Origin: a virus
Length of the DNA stretch: 64,000 nt
Strand: one strand, 5' to 3'
IMG/VR virus record: IMGVR_UViG_3300046330_000229
Location: 1 to 64,000 of that record
Position numbers and translations under genes: made by a program. Positions within the stretch are counted from its first letter, which is position 1, and each line of letters begins with the position of its first letter. Positions 31,183 through 47,467 of the stretch are shown in pieces. A model generated the notes under the pieces. That model worked only from the letters and a program-made list of their open reading frames with translations. It did no database searches and was not told where the DNA came from.

Positions 31183-31212
31183 GTAATAAACATAAAACAA
31201 GGAGATGGAATT

Positions 31213-32031: not shown

Positions 32032-32050
32032 TTTTTGACGGGATGTGATC

Positions 32051-32305: not shown

Positions 32306-32819
32306 AGTTGGAGACGTTGTTACAGCAAAGGACTACGGCATTGAAGCTGGGTATGTTTTGACTTCTTTCATGGACGGTTCATCTGAAGTTTATGAAATTA
32401 AAACTACTAACGGGTCTATGTATTTTGATGGCAACACCTTAAGTCTATACACTCCTCCTATGATAGAAATCACAGATACGAACACTTCTGAAGGTGTTAA
32501 ATTTGACCAAGGTAAGCCTGATTTAACCGACATTCCTTTAGAGGCTATGTGGGAAATGGGAAAAGCTTTTACCTACGGTCAGAAAAAGTACGGCAAATCA
32601 AACTATCGCAAAGGTATGTTGGTTTCTAGACAACTTGCTGCAGCAATACGACATGTGTATCAGCACTTAGACGGAGAGACTATTGATCCCGAATCTTCTG
32701 CTTTTCATCTCGGGCACGCGTTGGCTAGTATTTCAATGGCTATTTATAATTTAAAAAACAACCCACATTTAGACGACAGGTTTCCTGGGGATTTGAAAAA
32801 ACATGAAACAAGTAAATAA
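32295..32819 (+). CDS. dATP/dGTP diphosphohydrolase-like protein (MazG-like, DUF5664 type)
   Basis: 174 residues. A short N-terminal KOW/SH3-like segment (about 1-55, KFKVGDVVTAKDYG) precedes an all-helical core with the DUF5664 signature: KFDQGKPDLTDIPLEAM, then FTYGQKKYGKSNYRKG, RQLAAAIRHVYQHLDG and ESSAFHLGHALASISMA. This family hydrolyses dATP/dGTP in some phages, including those with modified adenine. In this window it stands with ribonucleotide reductase and a Mom-like protein, so it may shape the dNTP pool. Which substrate it uses cannot be read from the sequence. Confidence 0.7.
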   Translation: MKFKVGDVVTAKDYGIEAGYVLTSFMDGSSEVYEIKTTNGSMYFDGNTLSLYTPPMIEITDTNTSEGVKFDQGKPDLTDIPLEAMWEMGKAFTYGQKKYGKSNYRKGMLVSRQLAAAIRHVYQHLDGETIDPESSAFHLGHALASISMAIYNLKNNPHLDDRFPGDLKKHETSK

Positions 32820-33009
32820 ATTTATTAAGTTCTGGAACGTTGTTCTGTTATTTATCCCATTTTACTTAGCATTTGCTGTACATAGTCCTACCAAAGTTGC
32901 ATACATTAACAATACGATATGTTCATATCTTTATGTTATAAGTGCTTTTATTTTAAATGAAGTAATTCTTAATATAGCATTATCAATTAGGAGTATTTTT
33001 GGATCTTAA
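32803..33009 (+). CDS. Small two-segment membrane protein
   Basis: 68 residues with hydrophobic segments near 9-27 and 38-58 and little else. It overlaps both neighbours. It may associate with the inner membrane; function unknown. Confidence 0.5.
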   Translation: MKQVNKFIKFWNVVLLFIPFYLAFAVHSPTKVAYINNTICSYLYVISAFILNEVILNIALSIRSIFGS

Positions 33010-33253
33010 AGGTAAATTCATTAAACACGAACTGAGTATGGACGTTTGTTACAAAGTACTTAACGATGATGAAAACGACGTACTGGTTGACGCATGGAAT
33101 ATGGGTCAAACATCAGCGTATCCTATTGGTGAAACTTTTACACTAGTGAAGAATTTGCTTGACAAAAAATGGTTTGTGTGTGATAATGATAAGTATATAT
33201 TAGATAATAATCTTTCTTTTTCGGAGGCAAAATGGACGCGATTAGGTACGTAG
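32999..33253 (+). CDS. Small early protein
   Basis: 84 residues from TTG 32999 with AGGAG about 8 nt upstream. It is soluble, with beta strands (GKFIKHELSMDVCYKVL) and resembles in layout the 70-residue protein at 33674 (short N-terminal beta barrel-like unit). Function unknown. Confidence 0.5.
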   Translation: MDLKGKFIKHELSMDVCYKVLNDDENDVLVDAWNMGQTSAYPIGETFTLVKNLLDKKWFVCDNDKYILDNNLSFSEAKWTRLGT

Positions 33254-33672
33254 CTATTAAACTTGAAACAGGACTTAACGGTTTTGTTGATACTATTCAA
33301 AACACTTTATGTGATATGATGGGTATTAACGAGACGCCTGTAATAGATAATGAAATTAAAAAAACATACAGATTGAATCGTATTATTTCTTATTTTAAAG
33401 GTAACATTGATTCTCAGTACATTCTTAAAACGGATAAGGACGAAGCAACGTTATACACTAGCGAACTAGATACATCTTGGTGGAAAGCAAAAACTCCTTT
33501 AATGAAAGTAAAATCTAACGGAAATGGCATTACCGTAACACATAGACCTGGAGATGTTAGAAGTAAATTTAAAAAATTCGAACTAAATTATGCTGACGCT
33601 GAATATCTATTAATTCTGTTAAAATCTTTAGATTATGGTCAACACACTAAGCACAGAAAGATCGAGTACTAG
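33232..33672 (+). CDS. Early protein of unknown function
   Basis: 146 residues. The ATG is preceded by a good GGAGG site within the previous gene. The N-terminal 45 residues are helical, then mixed alpha/beta with SELDTSWWKAKTPLMKVK. The gene is packed tightly against both neighbours. Not recognised. Confidence 0.55.
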   Translation: MDAIRYVAIKLETGLNGFVDTIQNTLCDMMGINETPVIDNEIKKTYRLNRIISYFKGNIDSQYILKTDKDEATLYTSELDTSWWKAKTPLMKVKSNGNGITVTHRPGDVRSKFKKFELNYADAEYLLILLKSLDYGQHTKHRKIEY

Positions 33673-33673
33673 T

Positions 33674-33886
33674 ATGAAGTTCGAGATAAATAAGATGTAT
33701 AAAAATCTTTATAAAGATGAAAAAATGGCATTCATTGTTGACGAAGTTTTAGGTCAAGGTGCTAACGGATCAGATCTAGTAGTGACGTGGTATCAACAAA
33801 CTGATAACGGTAGATACATTAGCATAGGTATTGATGGAGAATTTCATATTCCCAAAGATAGCGTTATGTATTATATGGAAATTTAA
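33674..33886 (+). CDS. Small early protein
   Basis: 70 residues from ATG 33674, just after the previous stop; an upstream ATG at 33635 would overlap and lacks a ribosome site. Beta-rich, SH3/KOW-like layout (MKFEINKMYKNLYKDEKM). It overlaps the next ATG by TAATG. Function unknown. Confidence 0.5.
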   Translation: MKFEINKMYKNLYKDEKMAFIVDEVLGQGANGSDLVVTWYQQTDNGRYISIGIDGEFHIPKDSVMYYMEI

Positions 33887-34621: not shown

Positions 34622-35584
34622 ATGTCTAGTGTATTTCAAAAACATTCCGGTAAATATTTATTGGCTAGCAAATCTGAGATATTTGAGGAACTTCCATCTG
34701 ACGTATATACCGTACAAAACACACGTGAAGGTGTATTCTTTACACCATTAAAAATTCAAAAAGATTCTTTAATCCGCGTACCAAATTCTATCACTGATGA
34801 AGTTGTGTCTTTTATTGAAAACTTTACAAAACAAGAAACAAAAGAACGATATAAACAGTGTAAAATTACACACAAAACTGCGGTATTGTTACACGGAACT
34901 GCTGGATCAGGTAAGTCTGGAACATTAAATCTAATTATAGATGATATAGTAAGAACCGGCGGCATTGTTCTTTTTGACACTGATCCTAAGTTAGTTGCAG
35001 CCATTTTACCCGCTTTACGCGAACAAAATCCTGAAAAACTTATTTGTGTGGTGTATGAAGAGTTTGATGAATGGTTGCAGTCAAGTCAATCCACTATTAA
35101 TTCTTTTCTTGACGGACAATTAAGCGTTAATAATATGGTAGTGTTAGCCACTACAAATTATTTATCGCGCATTCCTAGTAGGATTAAAAATAGACCATCG
35201 CGATTTCAACTAGTGAAAGAAATTGGCGTACCGTCTGCTGAATTTAGACAAGAATGGTTATCTCGCAAGCTAGAAGAAATTGGTCAATCTGATAAGTTGG
35301 CGGAAATGGTACAAGTATCTGACGGTATGGTTGTGGATCAAATGAAAGATTTAATTGTATCACACATCGCTTTGCAGATTCCTTTGCACGAGGTGGTGAA
35401 AAAGTTACAGGACATGTCTTCTAACGCAGCAGGCATGGACGACTACAATGACTTCGAAACGCAGAAGCATATAAATGCTTCAAATGAACGTTTTAAGCTA
35501 GAAAAGGTTTTTAAAGCTCTTTCTGTACCTAATATAGTGTCTTTGTCATCTCAAAATGAACCAGAAGAGCCTACGGATTGGTAG
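34622..35584 (+). CDS. AAA ATPase 1
   Basis: 320 residues. Walker A GTAGSGKS at 92-99, Walker B-like ICVVYEEFDE at 141-150 (Tyr-Glu-Glu instead of the usual Asp-Glu), sensor 1 VVLATTNY near 174, and an arginine motif NRPSRFQL near 190. A second AAA protein of similar plan stands at 49640-50662, which suggests an ancient duplication. It immediately precedes the MoxR-VWA pair with its own promoter. It could be a remodelling ATPase, but the substrate is unknown. Confidence 0.75.
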   Translation: MSSVFQKHSGKYLLASKSEIFEELPSDVYTVQNTREGVFFTPLKIQKDSLIRVPNSITDEVVSFIENFTKQETKERYKQCKITHKTAVLLHGTAGSGKSGTLNLIIDDIVRTGGIVLFDTDPKLVAAILPALREQNPEKLICVVYEEFDEWLQSSQSTINSFLDGQLSVNNMVVLATTNYLSRIPSRIKNRPSRFQLVKEIGVPSAEFRQEWLSRKLEEIGQSDKLAEMVQVSDGMVVDQMKDLIVSHIALQIPLHEVVKKLQDMSSNAAGMDDYNDFETQKHINASNERFKLEKVFKALSVPNIVSLSSQNEPEEPTDW

Positions 35585-35662: not shown

Positions 35663-36730
35663 ATGAATATTAAAGAATTAAAACAGTTTTTACCATACGC
35701 ATTAACAGTGAAAGCTTCCGTTATGATTAACGGTTTACACGGCATTGGTAAGTCTCAGCTAGTAAAACAATTTGCTGACGAGAATGGATTAGATTTTATC
35801 GACATCCGATTATCACAAATTGATGCTACAGATTTGATCGGTTTACCTGATGTGTCAGGTGAAACTACTAAATTCAAGCCGCCAGCTTGGTTACCTCAAG
35901 ACCCAAATTCTAAAGGTATTTTATTTCTAGACGAATTATTTCGCGGTCGTCGTGACGTATTACAGGCTGTCTTTCAATTAGTACTAGACAGAAAGACCGC
36001 TTCTTATTGTCTACCTGAAGGATGGCACGTTGTGTCAGCGAACAATCCCTCGACTGACGACTACGACGTAACTAACGTATTTGACGCTGCACTATTAGAC
36101 CGTTTCTTACATATTAAACTTGAGCCAACAAAAGCTGAATGGTTTGATTACGTAAAGAAAGATGAATCAGTTGATCAGATGTTTGTTGAATACCTACAAA
36201 CACAAGAAGGTATGATTGAAGACTCCACACTAAAAGCTGCTGACTTTAAACGTAAACCTTCACGCCGATCTAATCACTTGGCTGGGCGCTTATTAAAAAC
36301 AGGACTACCTTCAAATCTAATGATCGAAGCTATTGCCGGACTTGTTGGTATCGAATCAGCCATCGCTTTTGATGCTTATAAAAAAGATAACGAAACTGCC
36401 CCGTTTAAACCAGAAGAAATCTTAACTAAACTTAAAGATATTAAAGATAAAGTAGTTAAGTATGCTGACATGGAAAAGGGTAGACATGACGTACTAACTG
36501 TGTCTTTAGACAACTTACGTATGGCTATTGAACAAAAGCAGCCTACAGTTAAACAAACCGACAATCTAGTTGTTTTCTTAAAACTTATTCCTAAAGATAT
36601 GTCTGTTGGATTTGTTCGAACACTTGCTGTAAGTAATATTAAAGAAGTTACGGCATACTGTTTAGAAGTATTGTTCAAACACCCAGACATTGATGAAGCA
36701 TTAGGTTTACCAGCAAAAGAGAAAGCTTAG
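35663..36730 (+). CDS. MoxR-family AAA ATPase
   Basis: 355 residues. Walker A GLHGIGKS at 24-31, Walker B GILFLDE at 85-91, sensor 1 SANNP near 125-129 and arginine finger LLDRF with Arg147. MoxR ATPases act as chaperones that load or activate VWA-domain partners; the next gene, 8 bp away, encodes such a partner. The pair has its own promoter. The cellular target in a phage setting is not known. Confidence 0.85.
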   Translation: MNIKELKQFLPYALTVKASVMINGLHGIGKSQLVKQFADENGLDFIDIRLSQIDATDLIGLPDVSGETTKFKPPAWLPQDPNSKGILFLDELFRGRRDVLQAVFQLVLDRKTASYCLPEGWHVVSANNPSTDDYDVTNVFDAALLDRFLHIKLEPTKAEWFDYVKKDESVDQMFVEYLQTQEGMIEDSTLKAADFKRKPSRRSNHLAGRLLKTGLPSNLMIEAIAGLVGIESAIAFDAYKKDNETAPFKPEEILTKLKDIKDKVVKYADMEKGRHDVLTVSLDNLRMAIEQKQPTVKQTDNLVVFLKLIPKDMSVGFVRTLAVSNIKEVTAYCLEVLFKHPDIDEALGLPAKEKA

Positions 36731-36738
36731 TACTTAAT

Positions 36739-37917
36739 ATGAAAAATAATCCATTAACTGACACAGTGTCGTCTATGTTATCCGAATTTCCATACTACGC
36801 ACAACTGCTGTTGTGTATGGATAGACGATTAACAGACCAAGTACCGATTGCTGGAGTATCCTTCAAACACGGTCGAGTTACTTTACACATTAACCCTAAT
36901 ACGTTTAATACGCTAACACCGTCACAACGTAAAGGGGTTTTATTACACGAATGTTGTCATATTATTTATAATCATTTCGGTAGATTTGAATTAAATAACA
37001 AAACTAACATTGCTACTGATCGCGTAATTAATGAAATAGTTAATAAGGTGTACTACGATAGTATTCCCGATGTATTAAATGTAGAAGGTATTGGTGACGT
37101 TAGACCGATTACGCCGCTTAATTTTAAAAGCTATTTAAAACCTAATACTCCAGTTCTTGAATTTCAACCAGCAGAGTATTATTTAAGTCTTCTTAATACA
37201 GAAGGTAACGGTAAAGCTGACGAGCCTCAAGAATTTAATTTTGATGATCATTCTGGTATGGATTCAGAAGGTGACGGAGCGGGATCAGCAAATGAAGTGA
37301 TTAAACAACAAATTCGTGCTATTTTAAATAAAGCTAAGGAAAAAACTAAAGCTATGGCTGGCAATATTCCTTCAGATGTTCTACTAGCCTTAGATGCTAT
37401 GAATAATGATACGCTGCCGTGGAATGCTGTACTACGTAAATTTATTGATAAAGCTACAGACGTTGTTCTTGATGGATCTAGAAAAAAAAGAAATAGACGC
37501 ACAGGCTTACTAGCTCCAGGAATTATTAAAGAGCCTAAGTTAAAAATTGGTGTAGCTATGGATACATCTGGTAGTGTTAGTGACGATTTTATTTCTGCAT
37601 TTTTAGGAGAACTAGATAAAATTTACGGTACAGGTATTACTGATATCCGTGTAACTTTTGGTGATACAGTACCGAACGATGTTGTACAATATAAGCCTAG
37701 AACTAAAATGAACATGTCTGGACGTGGCGGTACGTTATTTCAACCATTCTTGGATAAGTTAAATGACGAAGATGTTGATGTAATTGTTTACTTCACTGAT
37801 GGCGATAATTATGATACTATTCAAACAAAAATTCCCGTGTTATGGTGTCTATGTCCTAACTATTCAATACCTAAAGGCGCTAAAGAGCGCGACTGTGTGA
37901 AGATGAAACTTGGCTAG
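36739..37917 (+). CDS. VWA-domain metallopeptidase-like partner of MoxR (DUF2201 type)
   Basis: 392 residues. The N-terminal unit carries a zinc peptidase-like HECCH motif at 70-74 in helix GVLLHECCHIIYNHFGRF. A charged linker (about 155-205) follows. The C-terminal VWA domain has the metal-ion site DTSGS with Asp275, Ser277 and Ser279, and TDGD near 354. This architecture pairs with MoxR ATPases in many bacteria and phages. Such couples are known from general surveys as chaperone or quality-control modules, but its substrate here cannot be told. Confidence 0.8.
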   Translation: MKNNPLTDTVSSMLSEFPYYAQLLLCMDRRLTDQVPIAGVSFKHGRVTLHINPNTFNTLTPSQRKGVLLHECCHIIYNHFGRFELNNKTNIATDRVINEIVNKVYYDSIPDVLNVEGIGDVRPITPLNFKSYLKPNTPVLEFQPAEYYLSLLNTEGNGKADEPQEFNFDDHSGMDSEGDGAGSANEVIKQQIRAILNKAKEKTKAMAGNIPSDVLLALDAMNNDTLPWNAVLRKFIDKATDVVLDGSRKKRNRRTGLLAPGIIKEPKLKIGVAMDTSGSVSDDFISAFLGELDKIYGTGITDIRVTFGDTVPNDVVQYKPRTKMNMSGRGGTLFQPFLDKLNDEDVDVIVYFTDGDNYDTIQTKIPVLWCLCPNYSIPKGAKERDCVKMKLG

Positions 37918-38068
37918 TGATACATCTTTACATTTTTATGTACAACAGATAGGTGTTACGCCTATGTCCGAATTATTAGAGCAAATTAAAAGATACCGAC
38001 TATGGAGAGAAGGTATGTCAAAGATTACTTCTTTGTATTTTACTGACGGAAGGTTTAAAAATGAATAG
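37910..38068 (+). CDS. Short array-B protein, overlooked IGxxP member
   Basis: 52 residues from TTG 37910; the next possible starts are TTA-type or ATG 37964, which would lose the motif. It contains QQIGVTPMSELLEQIKRY, the same IGxxP(M) motif with following amphipathic helix as the downstream family. It overlaps the VWA gene by 8 bp and the next gene by 8 bp. The absence of an ATG or GTG start makes the exact 5' end uncertain; a short remnant is possible. Confidence 0.4.
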   Translation: MASDTSLHFYVQQIGVTPMSELLEQIKRYRLWREGMSKITSLYFTDGRFKNE

Positions 38069-38393
38069 TACAACAACGGCTATATGTAGTAAAATTGAAG
38101 AGATTATCGGTACATTTAAAAGTAAAATCCGAACAGCAGAAGCTTTAATGAAAGTGTTGGAGACGTTATCTCTTTATGAAGTTGGGATTGATAAAAATTC
38201 ACACAGACTATATCATTTTAAATATAAACTTATTAATGACGTGAGTAGTAATGAAGTACAATTTAAGATTGTAGCATTTCCTATTGACGCTTTAATGGGA
38301 GAACAAGATAGAGTATTATCAGTTGATGACTTACAAAATAATTACTTACCCTACTCTGTTAGTACAAGACAGGTGTTACCGGATAAAAAATGA
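38061..38393 (+). CDS. Early protein of unknown function
   Basis: 110 residues. Helical N-terminus (KIEEIIGTFKSKIRTAEALM) and mixed C-terminal half. The sharp IGxxP motif is not seen, so it may not belong to the paralogue array although it lies inside it. It overlaps the next gene by 4 bp (ATGA). Not recognised. Confidence 0.5.
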   Translation: MNSTTTAICSKIEEIIGTFKSKIRTAEALMKVLETLSLYEVGIDKNSHRLYHFKYKLINDVSSNEVQFKIVAFPIDALMGEQDRVLSVDDLQNNYLPYSVSTRQVLPDKK

Positions 38394-38584
38394 AAATAGA
38401 CCTTGGAGTACTGGACACACCTTATATATACATAATTCCTTATATGTTAGGTAAAACTTCTATTACTTGGTGTTTTATTTACCAAAACGCTATTATAAAG
38501 GCTAACACAGATGTGTGTGTTTCTAGTACAAGATTCTGGCGCTTAACTGAGATACTGTCTAAAAGATTTGGAATTGTTATATAA
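38390..38584 (+). CDS. Array-B protein, divergent member
   Basis: 64 residues. The segment PYMLGKTSITWCFIYQNAI and the end RFWRLTEILSKRFGIVI match the position and pattern of the neighbours (short hydrophobic LGKxP-type motif, aromatic helix, then basic C-terminal helix), but the Pro is replaced. Function unknown. Confidence 0.45.
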   Translation: MKIDLGVLDTPYIYIIPYMLGKTSITWCFIYQNAIIKANTDVCVSSTRFWRLTEILSKRFGIVI

Positions 38585-38817
38585 TGAGACATTGGACAAG
38601 TAGATTCTTGCATAGAGAAAATAGTGCTAGCCACGTTTTTATATTTAAAATTCTATGTTTTTATTTAGGCAAAGTTCCTTTAAAATATTTGTCTGTGTAC
38701 ATAGAGATGTTGTGTAGAATAAGTTTTTCACAAGAAGTGGAATTTCTTAGGTATAGTAAAATAGACCAATACCTAGATAAAAGGCTTGTTAGACAATACG
38801 GGAGACATAATGTTTAA
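38584..38817 (+). CDS. Array-B protein, sub-type 1
   Basis: 77 residues starting by TAATG. It has YLGKVPLKYLSVYIEMLCRI (IGxxP variant plus amphipathic helix) and the C-terminal basic helix YSKIDQYLDKRLVRQYG. This C-terminus matches the next two genes, defining one sub-type. Function unknown. Confidence 0.5.
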   Translation: MRHWTSRFLHRENSASHVFIFKILCFYLGKVPLKYLSVYIEMLCRISFSQEVEFLRYSKIDQYLDKRLVRQYGRHNV

Positions 38818-39043
38818 GGTGGGTAAGTGGACAAAGTACGCAACACAGCCTGATATCATTACCACACACGTACTAGGTAACTTAACTAAACACATAGGCA
38901 TTATGCCGATGGTAACTTTAACTAAATATGTAGAATTTATGTACCGTATAAAATTCGATAGGACTGTTTCAGCAGCTAGATACTACCGTCTTCGCCCTTA
39001 CTTACTAAGACGAATTACTAGACAATACGGAGTAATTCGGTGA
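38810..39043 (+). CDS. Array-B protein, sub-type 1
   Basis: 77 residues from ATG 38810 with GGGAG 5 nt upstream. It has KHIGIMPMVTLTKYVEFMYR and the C-terminal YYRLRPYLLRRITRQYG, clearly homologous to the previous gene. Very basic. Function unknown. Confidence 0.5.
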   Translation: MFKVGKWTKYATQPDIITTHVLGNLTKHIGIMPMVTLTKYVEFMYRIKFDRTVSAARYYRLRPYLLRRITRQYGVIR

Positions 39044-39267
39044 ATAATTTGAATAATTATACCTACGCTACGTTTTTTAATAGAAACTACCTATGTATAG
39101 CTTTGATGAAAAGAATCGGACAAATGCCCATGCGTTTTATACTACTATATACAAAAGCTTTGTATCATTCATGGAATAACTATATGTATTTAAAAACTGG
39201 TCCAGTTGGTAAGTATGACCGTTTATGTGAATGGTTAATGAAACGATATAACATAAGGTTTAGATAA
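39040..39267 (+). CDS. Array-B protein, sub-type 1
   Basis: 75 residues from GTG 39040, overlapping the previous stop. It has KRIGQMPMRFILLYTKALYH and KYDRLCEWLMKRYNIRF. A third copy of the same layout. Function unknown. Confidence 0.5.
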   Translation: MNNLNNYTYATFFNRNYLCIALMKRIGQMPMRFILLYTKALYHSWNNYMYLKTGPVGKYDRLCEWLMKRYNIRFR

Positions 39268-39498
39268 ATGGTCAGGTACGAATTTTTTATAGAAAGTGAA
39301 TTTACTGTACGACACCTTCGGACCGCAGTGGGTGTGATTCCTTGTAGAGTTATAGCCTTTTGGATTAATCTTATATGGAACACTTATTGCGATAGCTCAA
39401 GACAAATGACATACTTGAGATATAATAAATTGTGCGACCGAGTGATTAAACGTTATCCGCAAATTTTTGTTGACAAACCTACCTATTCTATGATATAG
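39268..39498 (+). CDS. Array-B protein, sub-type 1
   Basis: 76 residues. It has TAVGVIPCRVIAFWINLIWN and a C-terminal RYNKLCDRVIKRYPQIF. It starts directly after the previous stop. Function unknown. Confidence 0.5.
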   Translation: MVRYEFFIESEFTVRHLRTAVGVIPCRVIAFWINLIWNTYCDSSRQMTYLRYNKLCDRVIKRYPQIFVDKPTYSMI

Positions 39499-39499
39499 T
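39470..39499 (+). promoter_or_regulatory. Sigma70-type promoter inside the array
   Basis: TTGACA at 39470, 18-bp spacer, TATAGT at 39494, inside the end of the preceding gene; it serves the 124-residue gene. Confidence 0.5.
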
Positions 39500-39523
39500 G
39501 ATAGTATACCGCAAGGAGTTATA

Positions 39524-39898
39524 GTGAAAGATTTAGTGATGCCTAGGCTGTTAAAAGTTGTCGATATTTCAGCACCAGATAGACGTAACAGGATATATAC
39601 AAAAGTGCACATGTTCATGATGGACAGCGACCATTTTTTACGCCTAGCTAACTCGTTTAACTATGGTGAAATTTCAGCACTGGAGTGCCGAGTGGGTGTG
39701 TGCGTTAAACATCCCGACGATGACCATAATCCCAATTATAGCCAAGAGTTGGCCGAGTCTAGGTATAAGAAAATCTTATCTCGCATATTACATATCCTTA
39801 GTACCCCGAGCGAAGTTGTTATACAAACCGAGCATTACAGAATCGAGTATAGCCGGCTCGATCACTCATTATTCGTATCAGCTACCTCGCCATTATGA
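39524..39898 (+). CDS. Early protein of unknown function
   Basis: 124 residues from GTG 39524 with AAGGAG 6-8 nt upstream and its own promoter. Mixed helix and strand, with acidic PDDDHNPNYSQEL near 63-75. It does not carry the IGxxP motif, so it interrupts the tandem family. Not recognised. Confidence 0.55.
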   Translation: MKDLVMPRLLKVVDISAPDRRNRIYTKVHMFMMDSDHFLRLANSFNYGEISALECRVGVCVKHPDDDHNPNYSQELAESRYKKILSRILHILSTPSEVVIQTEHYRIEYSRLDHSLFVSATSPL

Positions 39899-40096
39899 GT
39901 GGCCGCCCTCGTTAAAATTTGACGCAATACAGGCCGCTCTAATAATAACTTTTCGTCTACAAAACATAATACTCTAACACATATCTAAGGTTATTAGTTT
40001 TAGGGCATTAATAACCAAAAATGACTATTAACTTTTGCCTTACAGGATATATAAATAGTGCTTCAAATCGAATATAACAGCAACAGAAGAAAAGAC
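39899..40096. other. Intergenic spacer with palindrome and flanking repeat
   Basis: The gap lacks a convincing gene. It holds a perfect GGTTATTA/TAATAACC inverted repeat (39989-40014) and the first copy of the 12-bp repeat AGGTTATTAGTT (39988-39999), whose second copy is just after the array at 42029-42040. Confidence 0.5.
39988..39999. repeat. 12-bp direct repeat, left copy
   Basis: AGGTTATTAGTT, identical to 42029-42040. The two copies bracket the second half of the IGxxP gene array. Confidence 0.45.
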
Positions 40097-40125
40097 TTGA
40101 CTTTATACTCTGTGTGTGGTATTGT
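40097..40125 (+). promoter_or_regulatory. Sigma70-type promoter for leaderless array-B gene
   Basis: TTGACT at 40097, 17-bp spacer, TATTGT at 40120, then 6 nt and ATG at 40132. Confidence 0.55.
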
Positions 40126-40131
40126 TATTAT

Positions 40132-40416
40132 ATGAGCGCGTACAATATACCAAAAGCTGTGTTAGAACGGGTACTTAGCGGATTAGGGGTGGCCCCTTCT
40201 GCAAATATTGCACGCCTTTTATGTGCTTTGGAATGTTACTATACAACCTCTTACGAGTCGGATTCTGAGTTATTTGATGAAGTGGCTACCCTCAATATTA
40301 AAGAAAGACTAAGAAAGTTCTACCCAACAAAGGACTATTCTCAGATTTACTATTACGAAGAAGCTCGGGTTACAAAACTTAACATAGAAAAGTTATTAGA
40401 TGAAGCAGCCGTATGA
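40132..40416 (+). CDS. Array-B protein, sub-type 2, leaderless
   Basis: 94 residues from ATG 40132, 6 nt after the -10 box; an upstream in-frame GTG at 40114 lies inside the promoter. It has SGLGVAPSANIARLLCALE, the IGxxP-type motif, then an acidic and aromatic C-terminal half. It opens a chain of eight overlapping genes to 42024. Function unknown. Confidence 0.5.
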   Translation: MSAYNIPKAVLERVLSGLGVAPSANIARLLCALECYYTTSYESDSELFDEVATLNIKERLRKFYPTKDYSQIYYYEEARVTKLNIEKLLDEAAV

Positions 40417-40666
40417 TGCTATTGTCAAACAGGCCTTCACTGACTATATAGGAGTGGCTCCTATGTCTGCTATTTTAGCCTACATAGACGATTATTTAAT
40501 AGTTACATGGAAACATTTCGGCTGGGTTACTGTTGAAAATCCCACACCAAGCTTATATAAGGCAGCGTCGGCAGTGTCTAGACATATAGACATACACGGT
40601 ATAGAACATCGATATGACGCAACCAACGCTAAGTGGATAGCTTATATTAGACAGGAGCAGATATGA
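40400..40666 (+). CDS. Array-B protein, sub-type 2
   Basis: 88 residues. It has DYIGVAPMSAILAYIDDYL and a beta-strand C-terminal half ending in a DATNAKWIAYIR-type strand. It overlaps the previous gene by 17 bp. Function unknown. Confidence 0.5.
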   Translation: MKQPYDAIVKQAFTDYIGVAPMSAILAYIDDYLIVTWKHFGWVTVENPTPSLYKAASAVSRHIDIHGIEHRYDATNAKWIAYIRQEQI

Positions 40667-40926
40667 CGTACGAATTGAATCATGAAGCCCGTCGAATAAT
40701 ACTATCTCTTATTGGAGTAGCTCCTATGGAAGTTATTAATTTACATTTATCAAATCTTGAAACTAGGACACCAGCACGAAGTTATCGATGGGCACTTATA
40801 CGTGAATATGACCATATTAGGATGTACCCAACTATTGATAATGTTTGTCTTTTAGGTGATGACGGCAGATGTTATTATTACAATAAATATCAAGAGTATA
40901 TGACTGTATGGGAAGCTACAATATGA
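40663..40926 (+). CDS. Array-B protein, sub-type 2
   Basis: 87 residues, started by ATGA. It has SLIGVAPMEVINLHLSNLE and a C-terminal LLGDDGRCYYYNKYQEYMTVW, a pattern (L..DG..Y/YI....W) repeated in the next genes. Function unknown. Confidence 0.5.
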   Translation: MTYELNHEARRIILSLIGVAPMEVINLHLSNLETRTPARSYRWALIREYDHIRMYPTIDNVCLLGDDGRCYYYNKYQEYMTVWEATI

Positions 40927-41165
40927 CAGTGAGACACCACATATCATCCTTTATCGGTATTGTACCCATGGAACTGATAACGAAGTCATTACTTCATTAC
41001 GGAGGGTGCCATTATGACATCGGGGCCGCGTGGGTGCTACATCCTAAAAATAAGACCGTTAAGCTCTATAGAGCAGCCAATAGCGATTTACACTTAAGTA
41101 CTGACGGTGAGATATACATAAGTGATAGATGGGCCTTATTTAGATTAAACAGGATTTCTTTATGA
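40923..41165 (+). CDS. Array-B protein, sub-type 2
   Basis: 80 residues from ATG 40923 (ATGA). It has SFIGIVPMELITKSLLHYG and a C-terminal LHLSTDGEIYISDRWALF. Same layout as the neighbours. Function unknown. Confidence 0.5.
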   Translation: MTVRHHISSFIGIVPMELITKSLLHYGGCHYDIGAAWVLHPKNKTVKLYRAANSDLHLSTDGEIYISDRWALFRLNRISL

Positions 41166-41410
41166 ATAAAGATATAGGCTATCTAGTTGAAAACATTGGT
41201 ATAATACCTACAAAGGTTATTACATTAGCTATTAAAAAAGAACTACGGCGTTGTGACACAAATCGTGGACATTGGTCGGAAACAGCAGAACCGAGTACAT
41301 ATTGGCCCGTTATGTACTCAGAAGAGATATATTACATTGACGAACAAGGTGAGTTCTATTATACAGCATTTGATGGGTCATGGCAGATATGGAGAGAGTC
41401 TCGTGACTAA
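41162..41410 (+). CDS. Array-B protein, sub-type 2
   Basis: 82 residues, started by ATGA. It has ENIGIIPTKVITLAIKKEL and C-terminal YYIDEQGEFYYTAFDGSWQIW. Same layout. Function unknown. Confidence 0.5.
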   Translation: MNKDIGYLVENIGIIPTKVITLAIKKELRRCDTNRGHWSETAEPSTYWPVMYSEEIYYIDEQGEFYYTAFDGSWQIWRESRD

Positions 41411-41675
41411 AGAAGAGTTTGTAGAACTAGTGGGTATTATGCCTTCAAACGAGCTATTACTGTGCTGGGAGCGTTCTACTGACGAACGGAATGAAAGACT
41501 ACGCACAGGCAGGTCTACCGGCTACGCGTGGACTGAAATGGACGGACTACCTATGTGTACGTTATATCGAGTTAATCGTAACTGGTTGTACGGATCTGAT
41601 GGTAATTGCTATATATTAGATGTATCAGAAGAGGTAGGCCTGGAAGTGTGGCATATATGGGAGAAAGTGTCATGA
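41403..41675 (+). CDS. Array-B protein, sub-type 2
   Basis: 90 residues from GTG 41403, overlapping the previous gene by 8 bp. It has ELVGIMPSNELLLCWERS and a C-terminal NWLYGSDGNCYILDVSEEV with W. Same layout. Function unknown. Confidence 0.45.
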   Translation: MTKEEFVELVGIMPSNELLLCWERSTDERNERLRTGRSTGYAWTEMDGLPMCTLYRVNRNWLYGSDGNCYILDVSEEVGLEVWHIWEKVS

Positions 41676-41941
41676 CAATAGCTCAAACTATAATGCAAGG
41701 ACTGGGAATTATGCCTACAAAGGTTATAGCTAATCTATTAAAAGAATACAAGGGTGTTGGTGACTACAAAGTACACACCGTATTATGGAGGCGTGCTGGT
41801 AGTAAAAATAACAAACATAAATTCTTATGTAAAGGACATAGTACTAGTTATTACCACGATGTGTATACAAATGGTAAGAGATTGTATTTAGACACAACTG
41901 GAGGAATGTTCCTTATTCCTAATACGGAGAAACAAGCCTAA
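41672..41941 (+). CDS. Array-B protein, sub-type 2
   Basis: 89 residues from ATG 41672 (ATGA). It has QGLGIMPTKVIANLLKEYKG and C-terminal RLYLDTTGGMFLIPNTE. Basic centre (KNNKHKFLCKGH). Function unknown. Confidence 0.5.
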   Translation: MTIAQTIMQGLGIMPTKVIANLLKEYKGVGDYKVHTVLWRRAGSKNNKHKFLCKGHSTSYYHDVYTNGKRLYLDTTGGMFLIPNTEKQA

Positions 41942-42024
41942 TGACAATACGAGATGTGATAGCTTCCAGCATAGGGGTTATACCCGCCCACAATGTTAAA
42001 GAGTTATTAGCTTATAATGATTGA
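41941..42024 (+). CDS. Array-B protein, truncated last member
   Basis: Only 27 residues: MTIRDVIASSIGVIPAHNVK then a stop after the first helix. The start is TAATG coupled. The IGxxP motif and helix are intact but the C-terminal domain is missing, as if the array was cut at its downstream end. It may be a remnant rather than a functional gene. Confidence 0.4.
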   Translation: MTIRDVIASSIGVIPAHNVKELLAYND

Positions 42025-42800
42025 ACTGAGGTTATTAGTTATATAGTGCTTAGCGAGCTAGTGAGACTGTCACCACGGCCCATCGCGTATACACCTCCTA
42101 CCCCCCTATATGCAAACTACATGCCAACTCTCCCCTTGCAAGAACTATACCAACGTATTGTTTTGATACATGGTATGATACTTGCACTCTTCAATATTCA
42201 TGCCTACTATATTTATATACATCCAGCATTGTATGTGCATTGACCATTGTCAGTGTCCTATAGACGTATAGCGACTCTATCTACAGAGGAGCTATATGTT
42301 TGTGTATGTATCTATTATCTTTTAACTATAGACTTATTACAGCGTGTAATGATGTTGTGCATTCTGGTATATATATTGCAGAGTGTGTATTCTTTATGTG
42401 TTATATATTCGATATGGTTGTGTTAGATCGTATATGTTTGTTATAAGGCGTGTTTGTGTGTCTATTCATTTATACCTACATATAACCACTATCTATCTAT
42501 ATCTTGTCAACCTTTATTTATTTTGGATACACCTCTAGATTATTAGGAGTCAATCCGTTTATTACAATGTATCTTTTGGATATCAAGGTTGTACATAAGG
42601 TACGATATACTTCAGATATTCGATACGATATTCTAATAATACGCATCTTATATATACTAGAGTAGTTGTCCGCCTGTCCCTTATTTACAGCTAGGGATTA
42701 GGTGCTCTCTGTTAGCTTAGTCCGATCTTAGCCTTGATTTTTACTCTTAGCCTCAAATAGTTCTTATCGTATTGTTTACGGTCTAGCTCTAGTTATCTTG
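42025..42800. other. Long region without convincing genes
   Basis: About 775 bp after the array. No reading frame with a supported start, good composition or coupling is seen; one 65-codon frame near 42046-42243 is weak. From about 42300 to 42480 the plus strand is very rich in T and G with little C. The second AGGTTATTAGTT copy lies at 42029-42040. The late-type motif at 42801-42821 points into this region from the right on the minus strand. Possible roles: replication origin, non-coding RNA, or decayed array genes. Confidence 0.45.
42029..42040. repeat. 12-bp direct repeat, right copy
   Basis: AGGTTATTAGTT, identical to 39988-39999. Confidence 0.45.
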
Positions 42801-42821
42801 TCTTACTATATATGTTAACCG
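42801..42821 (-). promoter_or_regulatory. Late-type promoter motif, copy 9 (orphan)
   Basis: Core TTAACATATAT followed by AGTAAGAC on the minus strand. Unlike the other copies it has no gene downstream within about 750 bp, and its core overlaps the stop codon of the small minus-strand gene. Confidence 0.5.
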
Positions 42822-43024
42822 TGCTTAGTTACATGGATTATGTAATGTCTAGCTGCGGATAAAATATCTTTTGGATATCCTTTTTTATTATTTGAATGTT
42901 CAGCAATGTGCGGTGCGAGCTTTAAGCAAAATTCTATATCGTTTCTTAATAACGCTAACTCAAAAGCTTGATCTACATTAGTCTGTATTTTTCTATTCTT
43001 ATATCGTTTTCTTTTTACTGTCAT
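42815..43024 (-). CDS. Small basic protein, near-leaderless, alone on the minus strand
   Basis: 69 residues from ATG 43024. A GTG at 43042 would place the start inside the -10 box, so it is rejected. The N-terminus is strongly basic (KRKRYKNRKIQT), followed by helical QAFELALLRNDIEFCLKL. A sigma70-type promoter (43034-43062) leaves only about 3 nt of leader. It is the only minus-strand gene in the early arm, diverging from the 43255 gene, which would fit a small regulator. No domain is recognised. Confidence 0.55.
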   Translation of the reverse strand: MTVKRKRYKNRKIQTNVDQAFELALLRNDIEFCLKLAPHIAEHSNNKKGYPKDILSAARHYIIHVTKHG

Positions 43025-43033
43025 AATCTCATT

Positions 43034-43062
43034 ACTATACACTATATTTTGTACACTGTCAA
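43034..43062 (-). promoter_or_regulatory. Minus-strand sigma70-type promoter
   Basis: TTGACA at 43062-43057, 17-bp spacer, TATAGT at 43039-43034, followed by 9 nt and the ATG at 43024. Confidence 0.6.
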
Positions 43063-43142
43063 GTAAATAATCACTAATGCCGATAAGTGAATAACTACAT
43101 TATGTTAGCCGTTTTCTAATATCTTTATTTAAAATATATGCT

Positions 43143-43157
43143 TATAAGTTTTACACT
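43143..43157. repeat. 15-bp direct repeat, left copy
   Basis: TATAAGTTTTACACT, identical to 45745-45759. Both copies lie in intergenic spacers upstream of early gene blocks. Candidate operator. Confidence 0.4.
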
Positions 43158-43188
43158 GTCAGATAGCCGCTTGTGCTTTAAATTACAC

Positions 43189-43217
43189 TTGACACGGCAC
43201 TACGATTGCAATACACT
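43189..43217 (+). promoter_or_regulatory. Sigma70-type promoter
   Basis: TTGACA at 43189, 17-bp spacer, TACACT at 43212. It serves the gene at 43255 after a leader of about 30 nt with AAAAGGA. Confidence 0.6.
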
Positions 43218-43254
43218 TAATCAAGATGCTCAAACATAACAAAAGGATAAAACA

Positions 43255-43710
43255 ATGAAATATTACTCAAGATCAAATATGTACAAGTCAGGTCAGAACT
43301 TAGTCCTAAACATGAATAACATGGTTGCAACGTCTTACGAATGGTATACATTAGCTAAGCAATTGAATAATGGCACAATGCTATTAAATATTTATAACTA
43401 TTCAAGTACAACGGTAAGACATTATTACAAGATGCGTAAACAGTTAACGAGCTTAGGTCTTGACATAATTGAGATTGAAGCGCCAAAAGGTCTACAAGAC
43501 TTAACTAGTGCTGTCAACTTATACAAGCGTTATATCACTGACTTGGAATCTGCCATTGATAAAAAGGGTAGCCGGTCGAGCACTAACGCAGTGCGTAGCG
43601 AGCTTATAAAGACATACAAGGAAAAAATACACTTTATTACTAGCATTCAATTTATGGAATCTAAACCCTCGCCAATTGAACGAGTTATGTATAACATGGA
43701 CGGTAAGTAA
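43255..43710 (+). CDS. Early protein of unknown function
   Basis: 151 residues with its own promoter and AAAGGA site. Helical in the second half with a basic KKGSRSSTNAVRSELIKTYK stretch near 102-121. First gene of the block that leads to the transglycosylase. Not recognised. Confidence 0.55.
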   Translation: MKYYSRSNMYKSGQNLVLNMNNMVATSYEWYTLAKQLNNGTMLLNIYNYSSTTVRHYYKMRKQLTSLGLDIIEIEAPKGLQDLTSAVNLYKRYITDLESAIDKKGSRSSTNAVRSELIKTYKEKIHFITSIQFMESKPSPIERVMYNMDGK

Positions 43711-43711
43711 C

Positions 43712-43942
43712 ATGAGAAAACTATATAAATACAGTGAATTAGATCAGCGAGGTAAAGCTCGAGCCGCGCAATGTTATCAACACGGCTTAAAAGAGAACAA
43801 GTTCTTTTCTGATGATGACATACCGGATATATTAGTGTGCTACGAATTATGTCTCGACACTGACGAGGTGTCAGCTTATGATGTAAATGGTGAACTATTA
43901 GAATTAACTGAAGCTGAAGAAACAATATTTTTTAAGGACTAG
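43712..43942 (+). CDS. Small acidic early protein
   Basis: 76 residues from ATG 43712, one base after the previous stop. N-terminus KYSELDQRGKARAAQCYQHG is a helical motif, and the rest is strongly acidic (ELLELTEAEETIFFKD). Such acidic small proteins can mimic DNA or inhibit host factors; that is only a guess from charge. No known domain. Confidence 0.5.
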   Translation: MRKLYKYSELDQRGKARAAQCYQHGLKENKFFSDDDIPDILVCYELCLDTDEVSAYDVNGELLELTEAEETIFFKD

Positions 43943-43945
43943 GTT

Positions 43946-44434
43946 ATGAAACGACTAGCTTTAATTTTGATTGCAGCATTGCCTTTGTCACTGTCTTATA
44001 TTGATACACCGTCACAGCCTCGCAGTAACGAGTATGACATTATTCGAGAGCTTGTCTTGTCTCAATCTATGACACCGCATGACGAGGCTATTAAGGCCAT
44101 AGTTAAGGCCTCTAAAATATACAGCCTTGACAGTCGTGAGCTTACTGCCATTGCTGTCATTGAAAGTAGTTTCAATCCTAGAGTACGTACTATGACGAAT
44201 CATAATGGTACACAAGACGTAGGTATGTTTCAAATAAACACTATCAATCATGTTACTTGTAAAGGTCTAGATCTGTCAGACGTTAGCGACAATGCTTTAT
44301 GTGCTGCGAAGCTTTTATCTAAACACAAGGAAAGTCGTTCTGACTACTTAGGCGTTTATCATTCTAAGACACAAGATAAAAAAATGAAATATATTCAAAA
44401 AATAACTAAAGTACTTGCTAACACTAGCCGATAG
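43946..44434 (+). CDS. Secreted lytic transglycosylase (SLT domain)
   Basis: 162 residues. Signal peptide about 1-19 (RLALILIAALPLSLSY), mature part with SLT fold: catalytic Glu73 in AIAVIESSFNP, then GTQDVGMFQINTIN near 88-101 and a C-terminal KLLSKHKES helix. It cleaves the peptidoglycan glycan strand from the periplasm. It is transcribed with early-type genes, not with the late lysis gene, so it more likely modifies the wall early or helps exported proteins than causes final lysis. Confidence 0.82.
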   Translation: MKRLALILIAALPLSLSYIDTPSQPRSNEYDIIRELVLSQSMTPHDEAIKAIVKASKIYSLDSRELTAIAVIESSFNPRVRTMTNHNGTQDVGMFQINTINHVTCKGLDLSDVSDNALCAAKLLSKHKESRSDYLGVYHSKTQDKKMKYIQKITKVLANTSR

Positions 44435-44440
44435 GTATAG
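44425..44440 (+). promoter_or_regulatory. Possible middle promoter, TAGCCGATA type, copy 1
   Basis: TAGCCGATAGGTATAG, about 25 nt upstream of the gene at 44466. Similar strings occur at 46683-46697 and, in part, 43079-43090. Confidence 0.35.
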
Positions 44441-44465
44441 TATAACAGTAACAAAGGACGCTTAA

Positions 44466-44711
44466 ATGAAAAAAGACTTAGAATTAGAATATAACTCATT
44501 CAAATATGATACAGACCGAGGTGAAATGTTAGTCATTGACGTTTTAAATAATGATGGTAAATTCAGCGAGTACGCTCTTAATCGTCACACTGGACTAAAA
44601 ATCATATTAAGTCAATATGTATCATCTAGAGACTACAACGACATTATGATTATGGCTGAAAAATTTGAATATGAGTCGGGCGATAAAGATTATTTTGACA
44701 AACACGGATAA
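44466..44711 (+). CDS. Small early protein
   Basis: 81 residues, acidic, mixed helix and strand (LEYNSFKYDTDRGEMLVIDV), with an ACAAAGGAC site before the ATG. Function unknown. Confidence 0.5.
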   Translation: MKKDLELEYNSFKYDTDRGEMLVIDVLNNDGKFSEYALNRHTGLKIILSQYVSSRDYNDIMIMAEKFEYESGDKDYFDKHG

Positions 44712-44723
44712 TAGTAATATACT
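44695..44723 (+). promoter_or_regulatory. Sigma70-type promoter
   Basis: TTGACA at 44695, 17-bp spacer, TATACT at 44718. It serves the short gene at 44743 and those after it. Confidence 0.6.
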
Positions 44724-44742
44724 AATAAAAAAGGAATAAAAA

Positions 44743-44871
44743 ATGGAATACTTACCACTAGCATTATTTTTAGCACTAGCGCCTATCTTGTGGATAGCAA
44801 TGATTTTAAATGAAGCTGATATCAAGCGACAAGATGATGAATTGAATAAAATCAATGGCTGGGCTGAATAA
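44743..44871 (+). CDS. Very short membrane protein 1
   Basis: 42 residues with one hydrophobic segment (PLALFLALAPILWIAMIL, about 5-22) and a charged C-terminal tail. AAGGA site upstream and own promoter. TAATG overlap to the next gene. Function unknown. Confidence 0.5.
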   Translation: MEYLPLALFLALAPILWIAMILNEADIKRQDDELNKINGWAE

Positions 44872-44960
44872 TGATAAAACTACTTATATGCGGCGGCTTA
44901 TTATTTTACGGCCATTGGATCATTGCCTTAATAGTATTATTTTTTGTAACAATTGACTAA
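44871..44960 (+). CDS. Very short membrane protein 2
   Basis: 29 residues, almost entirely one hydrophobic helix (LLICGGLLFYGHWIIALIVL) ending in TID. Translationally coupled (TAATG) to the previous mini-membrane protein. The two could form a membrane pair; this is inference. Confidence 0.4.
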   Translation: MIKLLICGGLLFYGHWIIALIVLFFVTID

Positions 44961-44978
44961 TTAACAAAGGACTAGAAA

Positions 44979-45128
44979 ATGAAATATGTAATTAAAGACA
45001 GAAACGATAAACAAGTGTTTGACGTAACATTCACCGACTTCAATCTTGCTGAAATATTTTTATGTGACACTTTAAAGCATAATTACGAGCGCACTAGATC
45101 ATGGTACTTTATCGTTGAGGCTGCCTAG
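44979..45128 (+). CDS. Short early protein
   Basis: 49 residues (MKYVIKDRNDKQVFDVTF start). AAAGGAC site upstream. Predicted strand-helix-strand. It ends one base before the ATG of the SET gene. Function unknown. Confidence 0.5.
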   Translation: MKYVIKDRNDKQVFDVTFTDFNLAEIFLCDTLKHNYERTRSWYFIVEAA

Positions 45129-45129
45129 T

Positions 45130-45510
45130 ATGACTCATATAACATACAGCGAGCAATATGGTCGAGAGGTAACGAGTCTTAAGCTTATTCCAAAGGGCAC
45201 TATCGTTGCCTTGTGTGAGCTTTTGGTCTTGTCTGAACAAGATACAAAAACGGTAGACAGTACAGATCTTAAGTATTACGTTTTTAAATATAACGAGACA
45301 CAAGATTGCTTAGTTATGGGCGAAGGTGAAATATTCAATCATAGTGATACGCCTAACACTGAATACAAACTTGTCCAGCATGAGGGCAGATCTAAAATGC
45401 AATTTACTGCACTAGATGATATTCCAGCCGGCACTCAACTATTTACGGACTACAATGCTGATATTAAGGTCAATACAAACGACTATGTACAAAAGAATAT
45501 GGTCGGATAG
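45130..45510 (+). CDS. SET-domain protein
   Basis: 126 residues from ATG 45130, with GAGG at 45117-45120; a TTG at 45115 would overlap the preceding gene. The SET fold motifs are visible: GEIFNHSDTPNTEY near 73-86 (NHSxxPN type, binding of S-adenosylmethionine) and DDIPAGTQLFTDYN near 101-114 (GxxLxxDY type). SET enzymes methylate lysine in proteins. It is short, so it should be a minimal domain. Substrate unknown; a host DNA-binding or translation protein is possible. Confidence 0.75.
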   Translation: MTHITYSEQYGREVTSLKLIPKGTIVALCELLVLSEQDTKTVDSTDLKYYVFKYNETQDCLVMGEGEIFNHSDTPNTEYKLVQHEGRSKMQFTALDDIPAGTQLFTDYNADIKVNTNDYVQKNMVG

Positions 45511-45512
45511 TC

Positions 45513-45668
45513 GTGTACAGTGTTATTATTTTTGCAATCTTTACAGGGGCTAGTATTGTTTTAGTCCCCTTGTGTCTTTTAGACGAGTCTTACAAGTGGG
45601 CTTTTTTGTTTTCCGTATCATTTTTAGTCAGTTTATTTATTACTTGCTTCGAGCTGTCTAGGCTCTAG
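45513..45668 (+). CDS. Small two-segment membrane protein
   Basis: 51 residues from GTG 45513, directly after the SET gene stop. Two hydrophobic segments (VIIFAIFTGASIVLVPLCLL and WAFLFSVSFLVSLFITCF) with a short charged turn between them. Function unknown. Confidence 0.45.
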   Translation: MYSVIIFAIFTGASIVLVPLCLLDESYKWAFLFSVSFLVSLFITCFELSRL

Positions 45669-45700
45669 TCATTCATACAAAAGTTCTACATAGTCATAAC

Positions 45701-45740
45701 GGCTTGAATTTATTAATGTTTTACTACTAAAGCCTTTTTT
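45701..45740 (+). terminator. Possible terminator after the SET block
   Basis: GGCTT and AAGCC (45701-45705 and 45730-45734) enclose a 24-nt loop and are followed by TTTTTT. The stem is short, so this is only probable. Confidence 0.4.
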
Positions 45741-45744
45741 CGTA

Positions 45745-45759
45745 TATAAGTTTTACACT
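45745..45759. repeat. 15-bp direct repeat, right copy
   Basis: TATAAGTTTTACACT, identical to 43143-43157. Confidence 0.4.
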
Positions 45760-45852
45760 CAAATATTTTTAGTTTTCAATGTTTTCAAGTACTTAGGCTA
45801 TGGCATACCGACTGCATATAGTATATGTATCAACTAAACAAAGGACTAAAAA

Positions 45853-46071
45853 ATGCAAATAATTCAAATAAGTTTTATAAAAAATGGTGTGTGGTTAGCT
45901 TCACACTATACTACTAATAAACATGATATGTCGTTGACTCCTGATAAGTCGTTGATAAGTCTTTTTGGTACGCATTCATTACCGACTCCGTATCCTGACT
46001 ACACTTGCCCGCACGAGGTTGCTGAAATGATTCAGAATAAAAACCCACAAGCTATAGTTGAGGTTGTCTAA
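45853..46071 (+). CDS. Small early protein
   Basis: 72 residues with AAAGGAC site upstream. It has a short strand-rich N-terminus (IIQISFIKNGVWLASHYT) and ends with CPHEVAEMIQNKNPQAI. Function unknown. Confidence 0.5.
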   Translation: MQIIQISFIKNGVWLASHYTTNKHDMSLTPDKSLISLFGTHSLPTPYPDYTCPHEVAEMIQNKNPQAIVEVV

Positions 46072-46072
46072 T

Positions 46073-46654: not shown

Positions 46655-46682
46655 TAAAATAAAACTAAAGTATTTTAAAACG

Positions 46683-46697
46683 TAGCCGATAAGTATA
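46683..46697 (+). promoter_or_regulatory. Possible middle promoter, TAGCCGATA type, copy 2
   Basis: TAGCCGATAAGTATA, about 15 nt upstream of the gene at 46713. Confidence 0.35.
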
Positions 46698-46712
46698 TCA
46701 AGAGGTAAAAAA

Positions 46713-46874: not shown

Positions 46875-46875
46875 T

Positions 46876-47130: not shown

Positions 47131-47132
47131 TT

Positions 47133-47333: not shown

Positions 47334-47334
47334 C

Positions 47335-47466: not shown

Positions 47467-47467
47467 T

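What the first reader, a model, noticed from the sequence alone, without database searches (positions are those of the whole stretch)
37910..42024. Tandem array of about fourteen small paralogues built on an IGxxP motif
At least thirteen genes share a short hydrophobic motif (for example IGVAPM, IGIIPT, VGVIPC, LGIMPT) followed by an amphipathic helix. Two sub-types differ in the C-terminal half: a basic helix with RxxRQYG or KRY (38.6-39.5 kb), or a beta unit with DGxxYY and Trp (40.1-41.9 kb). They are packed by TAATG and ATGA coupling and diverge strongly in sequence but keep the motif, the pattern of a family under diversifying pressure, such as anti-defence or host-range factors. I know of no described family with this layout. 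Function is inference.
Basis: partly seen in the sequence, partly recalled or inferred. Interest (0 to 1): 0.9.

Follow-up and report, generated by a model that had tools for sequence, protein, structure and literature searches.

The report
Phage array of motif-sharing small proteins
An uncultured 82-kb phage carries a tandem run of thirteen tiny, strongly diverged sister genes that keep one short shared motif, and several related phages carry their own, differently worded sets of small proteins with a shared short tag, which looks like one docking tag fitted to many variable infection proteins, though what the tag binds is unknown.

Summary
Between 37,910 and 42,024 lie 16 tightly packed ORFs; 13 carry [ILV]-G-x-[ILVAMT]-P (composition shuffles: mean 0.15, maximum 3 in 20,000). 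The conserved unit is about 26 residues, helix-IGxxP-helix. It is conserved as protein (six different codons at aliphatic columns that are 13/13 conserved). Independently predicted models of the two subtypes show the same element. Downstream halves fall into a basic-helix subtype (38.4-39.5 kb) and a beta subtype (40.1-41.9 kb). Neighbours resemble each other most (p=0.004), so the array grew by tandem duplication. It follows a MoxR ATPase and a metallopeptidase-VWA gene. No relative was found in Pfam, PHROGs, PADLOC, PDB, named phages, or about 75 IMG/VR relatives. An RNA-hairpin origin was tested and not supported.

Unexpected: related phages hold their own multi-copy small proteins sharing a different short motif: TRLARK in 23 proteins of one phage (at either end of the protein), C-terminal SxLxxEL, SKLIxALL, SPLLRxIYE and TPLMEALL in others, often near the same MoxR-VWA pair. 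I read the motif as a phage-specific docking module on variable, probably host-directed proteins. That function is inferred. Diversifying selection and anti-defence activity were not shown.

The parts
35663..36730 (+). MoxR-type AAA+ ATPase (AAA_5), upstream neighbour
   Evidence: PF07728 E 4.7e-7; phrog_1297 E 1.6e-59; diverged homologue next to the VWA gene in G003
36739..37917 (+). Metallopeptidase-VWA protein (DUF2201_N + DUF2201, HExxH = HECCH); its end overlaps the first array ORF
   Evidence: PF13203 E 2.1e-15, PF09967 E 2.1e-10
37910..38068 (+). a1: motif ORF, 52 aa, IGVTPM; TTG start overlaps the VWA stop (start uncertain, in-frame ATG at 37964 possible)
   Evidence: leave-one-out E 0.012
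38061..38393 (+). Interspersed ORF without the motif, 110 aa, no relative
38390..38584 (+). a2: probable derived member, motif lost, subtype A C-terminal half
   Evidence: C-terminal z 6.1 with 38810
38584..38817 (+). a3: subtype A, LGKVPL
   Evidence: C-terminal z 11.3 with 38810
38810..39043 (+). a4: subtype A, IGIMPM, basic C-terminal helix ending RQYG
   Evidence: structure model pLDDT 63; leave-one-out E 0.0047
39040..39267 (+). a5: subtype A, IGQMPM
   Evidence: leave-one-out E 0.027
39268..39498 (+). a6: subtype A, VGVIPC
   Evidence: C-terminal z 5.5 with 39040; blastp E 8e-6 with 39040
39470..39499 (+). Promoter-like site (TTGACA-18-TATAGT, TG before the second hexamer) between the blocks
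   Evidence: 11 of 12 matches; promoter-like sites as a class are not above chance in this region
39524..39898 (+). Interspersed ORF without the motif, 124 aa, no relative
39985..40002 (+). Left copy of an 18-nt direct repeat (89%) flanking the subtype B block; resembles the family's TKVIT-coding DNA, possible remnant
   Evidence: D11
40132..40416 (+). b0: LGVAPS, atypical subtype B (GTG start at 40114 possible)
40400..40666 (+). b1: subtype B, IGVAPM
   Evidence: leave-one-out E 1.8e-4
40663..40926 (+). b2: subtype B, IGVAPM, DGRCYYY
   Evidence: leave-one-out E 3.6e-4; structure model pLDDT 61
40923..41165 (+). b3: subtype B, IGIVPM, DGEIYI
   Evidence: leave-one-out E 0.001
41162..41410 (+). 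b4: subtype B, IGIIPTKVI, GEFYYT
   Evidence: leave-one-out E 7.1e-4
41403..41675 (+). b5: subtype B, VGIMPS, DGNCYI
   Evidence: C-terminal z 4.8 with b2, 3.6 with b3
41672..41941 (+). b6: LGIMPTKVI, beta unit diverged
   Evidence: leave-one-out E 5.9e-5
41941..42024 (+). b7: truncated 27-aa member, IGVIPA
   Evidence: N-terminal match to b3, E 6e-4
42026..42043 (+). Right copy of the 18-nt direct repeat flanking the subtype B block
   Evidence: D11

Best explanation
A lineage-specific tandem family of small phage proteins built from a shared N-terminal helix-IGxxP-helix module of about 26 residues and a variable C-terminal half. Shown: the family, its protein-level conservation, its two subtypes, tandem growth, packed translation, and its place after a MoxR/VWA-peptidase pair. 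Inferred: the shared module docks every member to one common partner (a phage or host hub, or another member), and the variable half binds different host targets, so the array is a toolkit of host-takeover or counter-defence proteins that grows and decays by duplication. Related phages appear to do the same with other short tags.
For: Motif excess, genome-wide profile and leave-one-out, two aliphatic positions 13/13 conserved with six codons each, the same element in two independent models and in hhalign, two C-terminal subtypes and tandem pattern, overlapping genes. Parallel sets in relatives: TRLA 22 observed vs 0.06 expected in one phage, SxLxxEL 15 vs 0.58, PLxxxI[YFW] 9 vs 0.14; the TRLARK module sits near the C-terminus of most and near the N-terminus of three small proteins of the same phage, so it is portable. 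Bodies differ while the tag is kept. Published precedent for one conserved tag on diverse anti-restriction proteins: T-even internal proteins (PMC3012670, PMC9391042).
Against: No partner, expression or phenotype is known. IGxxP differs from the relatives' tags: N-terminal, inside a predicted two-helix unit, in one tandem array. I could not show that it is homologous to them. C-terminal halves within each subtype are still related, so targets may not differ. No defence or counter-defence family matches.
Confidence: 0.42

Rival explanations
1. The array products are adaptors, substrates or cargo of the adjacent MoxR + metallopeptidase-VWA chaperone; the motif is the peptide its VWA or peptidase domain recognises.
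For: The first member overlaps the VWA stop codon. In G003, G060 and G062 tagged small genes also start directly after the VWA gene. All six near-complete genomes with the VWA gene have a top motif above their own shuffles, though weakly in G061. The literature proposes that VWA domains in MoxR-vWA systems bind peptides (PMC7159879) and that phage MoxR-vWA-peptidase pairs act in virion assembly (PMC7824862).
Against: G005 shows the SxLxxEL tag with no VWA found (its record is a 60-kb fragment). Tagged genes are also spread far from the VWA gene. Many named phages carry the VWA gene, and whether they have such families was not examined. The sampling was not independent.
Confidence: 0.16
2. They are virion-packaged proteins injected with the genome; the shared module is a capsid-targeting signal, as in T4 internal proteins.
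For: Same logic: one conserved short targeting sequence on diverse small proteins (PMC3012670, PMC9391042).
Against: The array lies with early-type genes on the opposite strand from the structural block. No cleavage of the module is evident. Tags of relatives sit mostly at the C-terminus.
Confidence: 0.1
3. They are small DNA- or RNA-binding regulators; helix-IGxxP-helix is a diverged helix-turn-helix and subtype A's basic helix contacts nucleic acid.
For: The spacing hydrophobic-G-hydrophobic-x-P before a helix resembles helix-turn-helix segments (own knowledge); subtype A is basic (+3 to +12).
Against: The invariant aliphatic lies at G+7, not G+6; no small residue at G-4; the models put a short strand pair, not a tight turn, at the motif; subtype B is mostly acidic; no Pfam helix-turn-helix match.
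Confidence: 0.1
4. Decaying duplicates with little function, kept by recombination.
For: A motif-less copy, a 27-aa end member, possible remnants at 39985 and 42026, and low coding scores.
Against: G, P and two aliphatic positions are conserved in 13/13 while their codons vary, which needs purifying selection; frames stay open and overlapping.
Confidence: 0.08

Closest known systems
T-even phage internal proteins (IPI, IPII, IPIII) with a capsid-targeting sequence
   Same: Small, highly diverse proteins that share one short conserved sequence; IPI blocks the GmrSD nuclease and IPIII is needed on one E. coli strain (PMC3012670, PMC9391042)
   Different: Sequence similarity was not tested directly; no known packaging, no mapped cleavage, here an array of thirteen in the non-structural region, and the module is a predicted two-helix unit
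MoxR-vWA (RavA-ViaA-like) chaperone pairs of phages and of conflict systems
   Same: The adjacent genes are a MoxR AAA+ ATPase and a metallopeptidase-VWA fusion like that described in jumbo phages (PMC7824862)
   Different: The array proteins are not VMAP, iSTAND or FtsH components (no Pfam or PADLOC match); an array of small paralogues after the pair is not described in the passages I read
Lineage-specific expansions of small proteins in large phages, such as about 35 zinc-ribbon copies in Bacillus phage G (PMC7824862)
   Same: Many copies of one small domain in a single phage
   Different: No zinc ribbon; a tandem array here (the layout in phage G was not checked); unrelated sequence

Membership tests
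T4-type internal proteins | Shared targeting sequence on diverse small proteins | tested here: inconclusive
   A shared N-terminal module exists but was not compared with the T4 sequence and its role is unknown
T4-type internal proteins | Presence in the virion and cleavage by the prohead protease | not testable with these tools
   Needs virion proteomics
Helix-turn-helix regulators | Canonical spacing, small residue at G-4 and hydrophobic at G+6 | tested here: not met
   Invariant aliphatic at G+7, no small residue at G-4; no Pfam match
MoxR-vWA ternary conflict systems | MoxR AAA+ ATPase next to a VWA protein | tested here: met
   AAA_5 and DUF2201/VWA at 35663-37917
MoxR-vWA ternary conflict systems | Third core component (VMAP, iSTAND, FtsH or beta-propeller) | tested here: not met
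   Array proteins match none in Pfam or PADLOC; an AAA (PF00004) ATPase lies upstream at 34622-35584, not identified as FtsH
Known phage or defence protein families | Profile match in PHROGs, Pfam or PADLOC | tested here: not met
   No convincing match for any member scanned (the 27-aa member was not scanned); best was E 0.0028, below its Pfam cut-off
Lineage-specific tags of related phages (SxLxxEL, TRLARK and others) | Short motif shared by many small proteins of one phage | tested here: met
   IG..PM log-likelihood ratio 27.6 against 9-12 in shuffles
Lineage-specific tags of related phages (SxLxxEL, TRLARK and others) | Sequence homology and mostly C-terminal position | tested here: not met
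   IGxxP is N-terminal and its profile finds nothing in relatives

The most novel reading that the evidence does not exclude
A clade of about 80-kb phages marks 10 to 25 otherwise diverse small early proteins per genome with one phage-specific peptide tag (IGxxP, TRLARK, SxLxxEL, SKLIxALL, SPLLRxIYE or TPLMEALL) that directs them to a common phage machine, possibly the MoxR-VWA-peptidase, and the tag changes between lineages together with its reader.
Probability: 0.2. Interest if true: 0.88.

Novelty: new variant of a known kind. Interest (0 to 1): 0.62.

Why it matters
Most small early phage genes have no known function and are studied one at a time. A motif shared by a dozen or more of them in one genome gives a single handle: find what the motif binds and a whole class of phage infection proteins becomes testable at once. 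Different phages of the same clade use different motifs, so tag and reader could be paired by comparative genomics. Nothing like the IGxxP family was found in Pfam, PHROGs, PADLOC, PDB or named phages.

Tried and rejected
1) RNA or DNA hairpin behind the motif: GGN...CCN can pair, and several copies form 4-7 bp stems, but synonymous-codon shuffles give similar stability (87 of 500 as stable or more). 2) Motif as an internal Shine-Dalgarno plus start codon (AGGxG...ATG in IGVAPM): explains at most the six copies with Met after Pro, not the invariant aliphatic and Pro; rejected as the main cause. 3) C-terminal tags of relatives as mere overlap with the next gene's start: about half overlap a start, but codons vary and several have no overlapping gene. 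4) F-box or RNase (barnase, Sa2) folds: appear only among non-significant structure matches, best E about 0.16 or worse. 5) Relatives of the array by motif patterns and a triple-motif DNA pattern in IMG/VR: none. 6) Host by polymerase alignment in GTDB genomes: none. 7) Rfam: none.
Full report
What the window is. The window is bases 1-64000 of an 82,265-base IMG/VR virus record. It has no nucleotide match among named phages for the stretches tested (array region and bases 1-25000). Terminase and portal are closest to a phage of Silvanigrella aquatica (28.6% and 26.9% identity) and the DNA polymerase to a Flavobacterium phage (43%), so the host is not settled. By polymerase the nearest IMG/VR relatives are about 55-63% identical.

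The observation. I re-read the ORFs. Sixteen ORFs are packed from 37910 to 42024 with overlaps of 1, 4, 8 and 17 nt and one real gap at 39899-40131. Thirteen carry [ILV]G.[ILVAMT]P; shuffled proteins average 0.15 and never exceed 3 in 20,000 trials. The motif is absent from other small + strand ORFs of the window, apart from one chance-like match at 50761. A 26-residue profile returns exactly the 13 frames, but it was built from them; in leave-one-out 8 of 13 beat every other frame of the genome and 5 do not. A profile from the upstream group alone ranks four downstream members above any non-member, and hhalign aligns the two groups on the motif (E 1.4e-4).

It is conserved as protein. Column by column, the residue before G and the residue four after P are aliphatic in all 13 copies and use six different codons each; G uses four codons and P three. 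Helix-like hydrophobic spacing continues on both sides. Two other readings were tested. Codon shuffles do not support a nucleic-acid hairpin. An internal ribosome-binding site plus ATG fits only the copies with Met after Pro.

Structure and subtypes. AlphaFold2 models from the two subtypes separately are of modest confidence (pLDDT 61 and 63) but both give helix, a short strand pair at IGxxP, helix; then five strands in subtype B or a long basic helix in subtype A. Structure libraries give no significant match. C-terminal halves are related within subtype A (mean z 3.7) and weakly within B (1.2) but not between them (-0.2). Similarity falls with distance along the array (Spearman -0.36, p = 0.004), as expected for tandem duplication. 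A motif-less copy at 38390, a 27-aa end copy and an 18-nt direct repeat flanking block B suggest ongoing birth and death.

Neighbourhood. Immediately upstream are a MoxR AAA+ ATPase and a DUF2201 metallopeptidase-VWA protein; the first array ORF overlaps the VWA stop codon. Such pairs are known in phages and have been proposed to act in virion assembly (PMC7824862); in bacterial conflict systems the VWA is proposed to bind a peptide of a partner (PMC7159879).

Relatives. The array profile finds nothing in some 75 related records or in their sequence held here, nor do pattern scans of IMG/VR. These searches are not exhaustive, and the very nearest records may be left out by the tool. But the relatives hold an analogous surprise. 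G003 has about 15 small proteins with a C-terminal SPLLRxIYE-like motif; G058 has 16 with SxLxxEL at the very end; G060 about ten with SKLIxALL; L040 seven with TPLMEALL-like tails; and G062 has 23 with TRLARK(M/L)(Y/F)P, mostly followed by a short DG-containing end, near the C-terminus in twenty and near the N-terminus in three. In an unbiased motif scan, own, G003, G058 and G062 exceed their shuffles by far, G060 and G005 clearly, G061 only slightly; G004, G047 and G057 do not and G016 hardly. All six genomes found to have the VWA gene are among the positives; G005 (a 60-kb fragment without it) is also positive. I treat the VWA link as a lead only, because four of these genomes were fetched through the VWA gene.

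How it most likely works. The pattern of one invariant short module with variable bodies, many copies, tandem growth and an early-type location suggests a common docking module and variable host-directed halves. The best-studied parallel is the internal proteins of T-even phages, described as diverse defence proteins sharing only a capsid-targeting sequence (PMC3012670), one of which is needed on a particular E. coli strain (PMC9391042). That is a likeness of logic, not membership. I cannot say whether IGxxP is homologous to the relatives' tags; position and sequence differ.

Verdict. The family is real and apparently undescribed in the libraries searched. 'Diversifying pressure' and 'anti-defence' are plausible but untested. 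The wider tag phenomenon is the more interesting result and deserves its own study.

Noticed in passing
L167-L171 (G062), e.g. record positions 28986-33757 and 36705-55325: 23 small proteins share a portable TRLARK(M/L)(Y/F)P module, mostly followed by a DG-containing end; near the C-terminus in twenty and near the N-terminus in three (13003, 15052, 53019); many bodies look SH3-like by eye.
   Followed up: partly
L176-L180 (G058), L172-L175 (G061), L029-L031 (G005): Many unrelated-looking small proteins end in SxLxxEL plus one residue at the C-terminus.
   Followed up: partly
L019-L023 (G003), L162-L166 (G060), L040: Other lineages use SPLLRxIYE, SKLIxALL and TPLMEALL tails on small proteins; about half of the G003 tails overlap the next gene's start.
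   Followed up: partly
window 39985-40002 and 42026-42043: An 18-nt direct repeat (89%) flanks the subtype B block and resembles the TKVIT-coding DNA of members; possible gene remnants.
   Followed up: partly
window 38790-38812 and 39020-39042: The DNA for the conserved C-terminal RQYG (AGACAATACGG(G)AG) doubles as the Shine-Dalgarno site of the next gene.
   Followed up: yes
window 42025-43254: About 1.2 kb without convincing + strand genes; one small basic ORF on the minus strand (42815-43042) has an 11-of-12 promoter-like site just upstream (43062-43034).
   Followed up: no
window 52010-52591: By eye, a ClpP-like protease gene in the early-type region (no profile search run).
   Followed up: no
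window 34622-35584: A second AAA ATPase (PF00004, E 1.6e-6) upstream of the MoxR-VWA pair.
   Followed up: no
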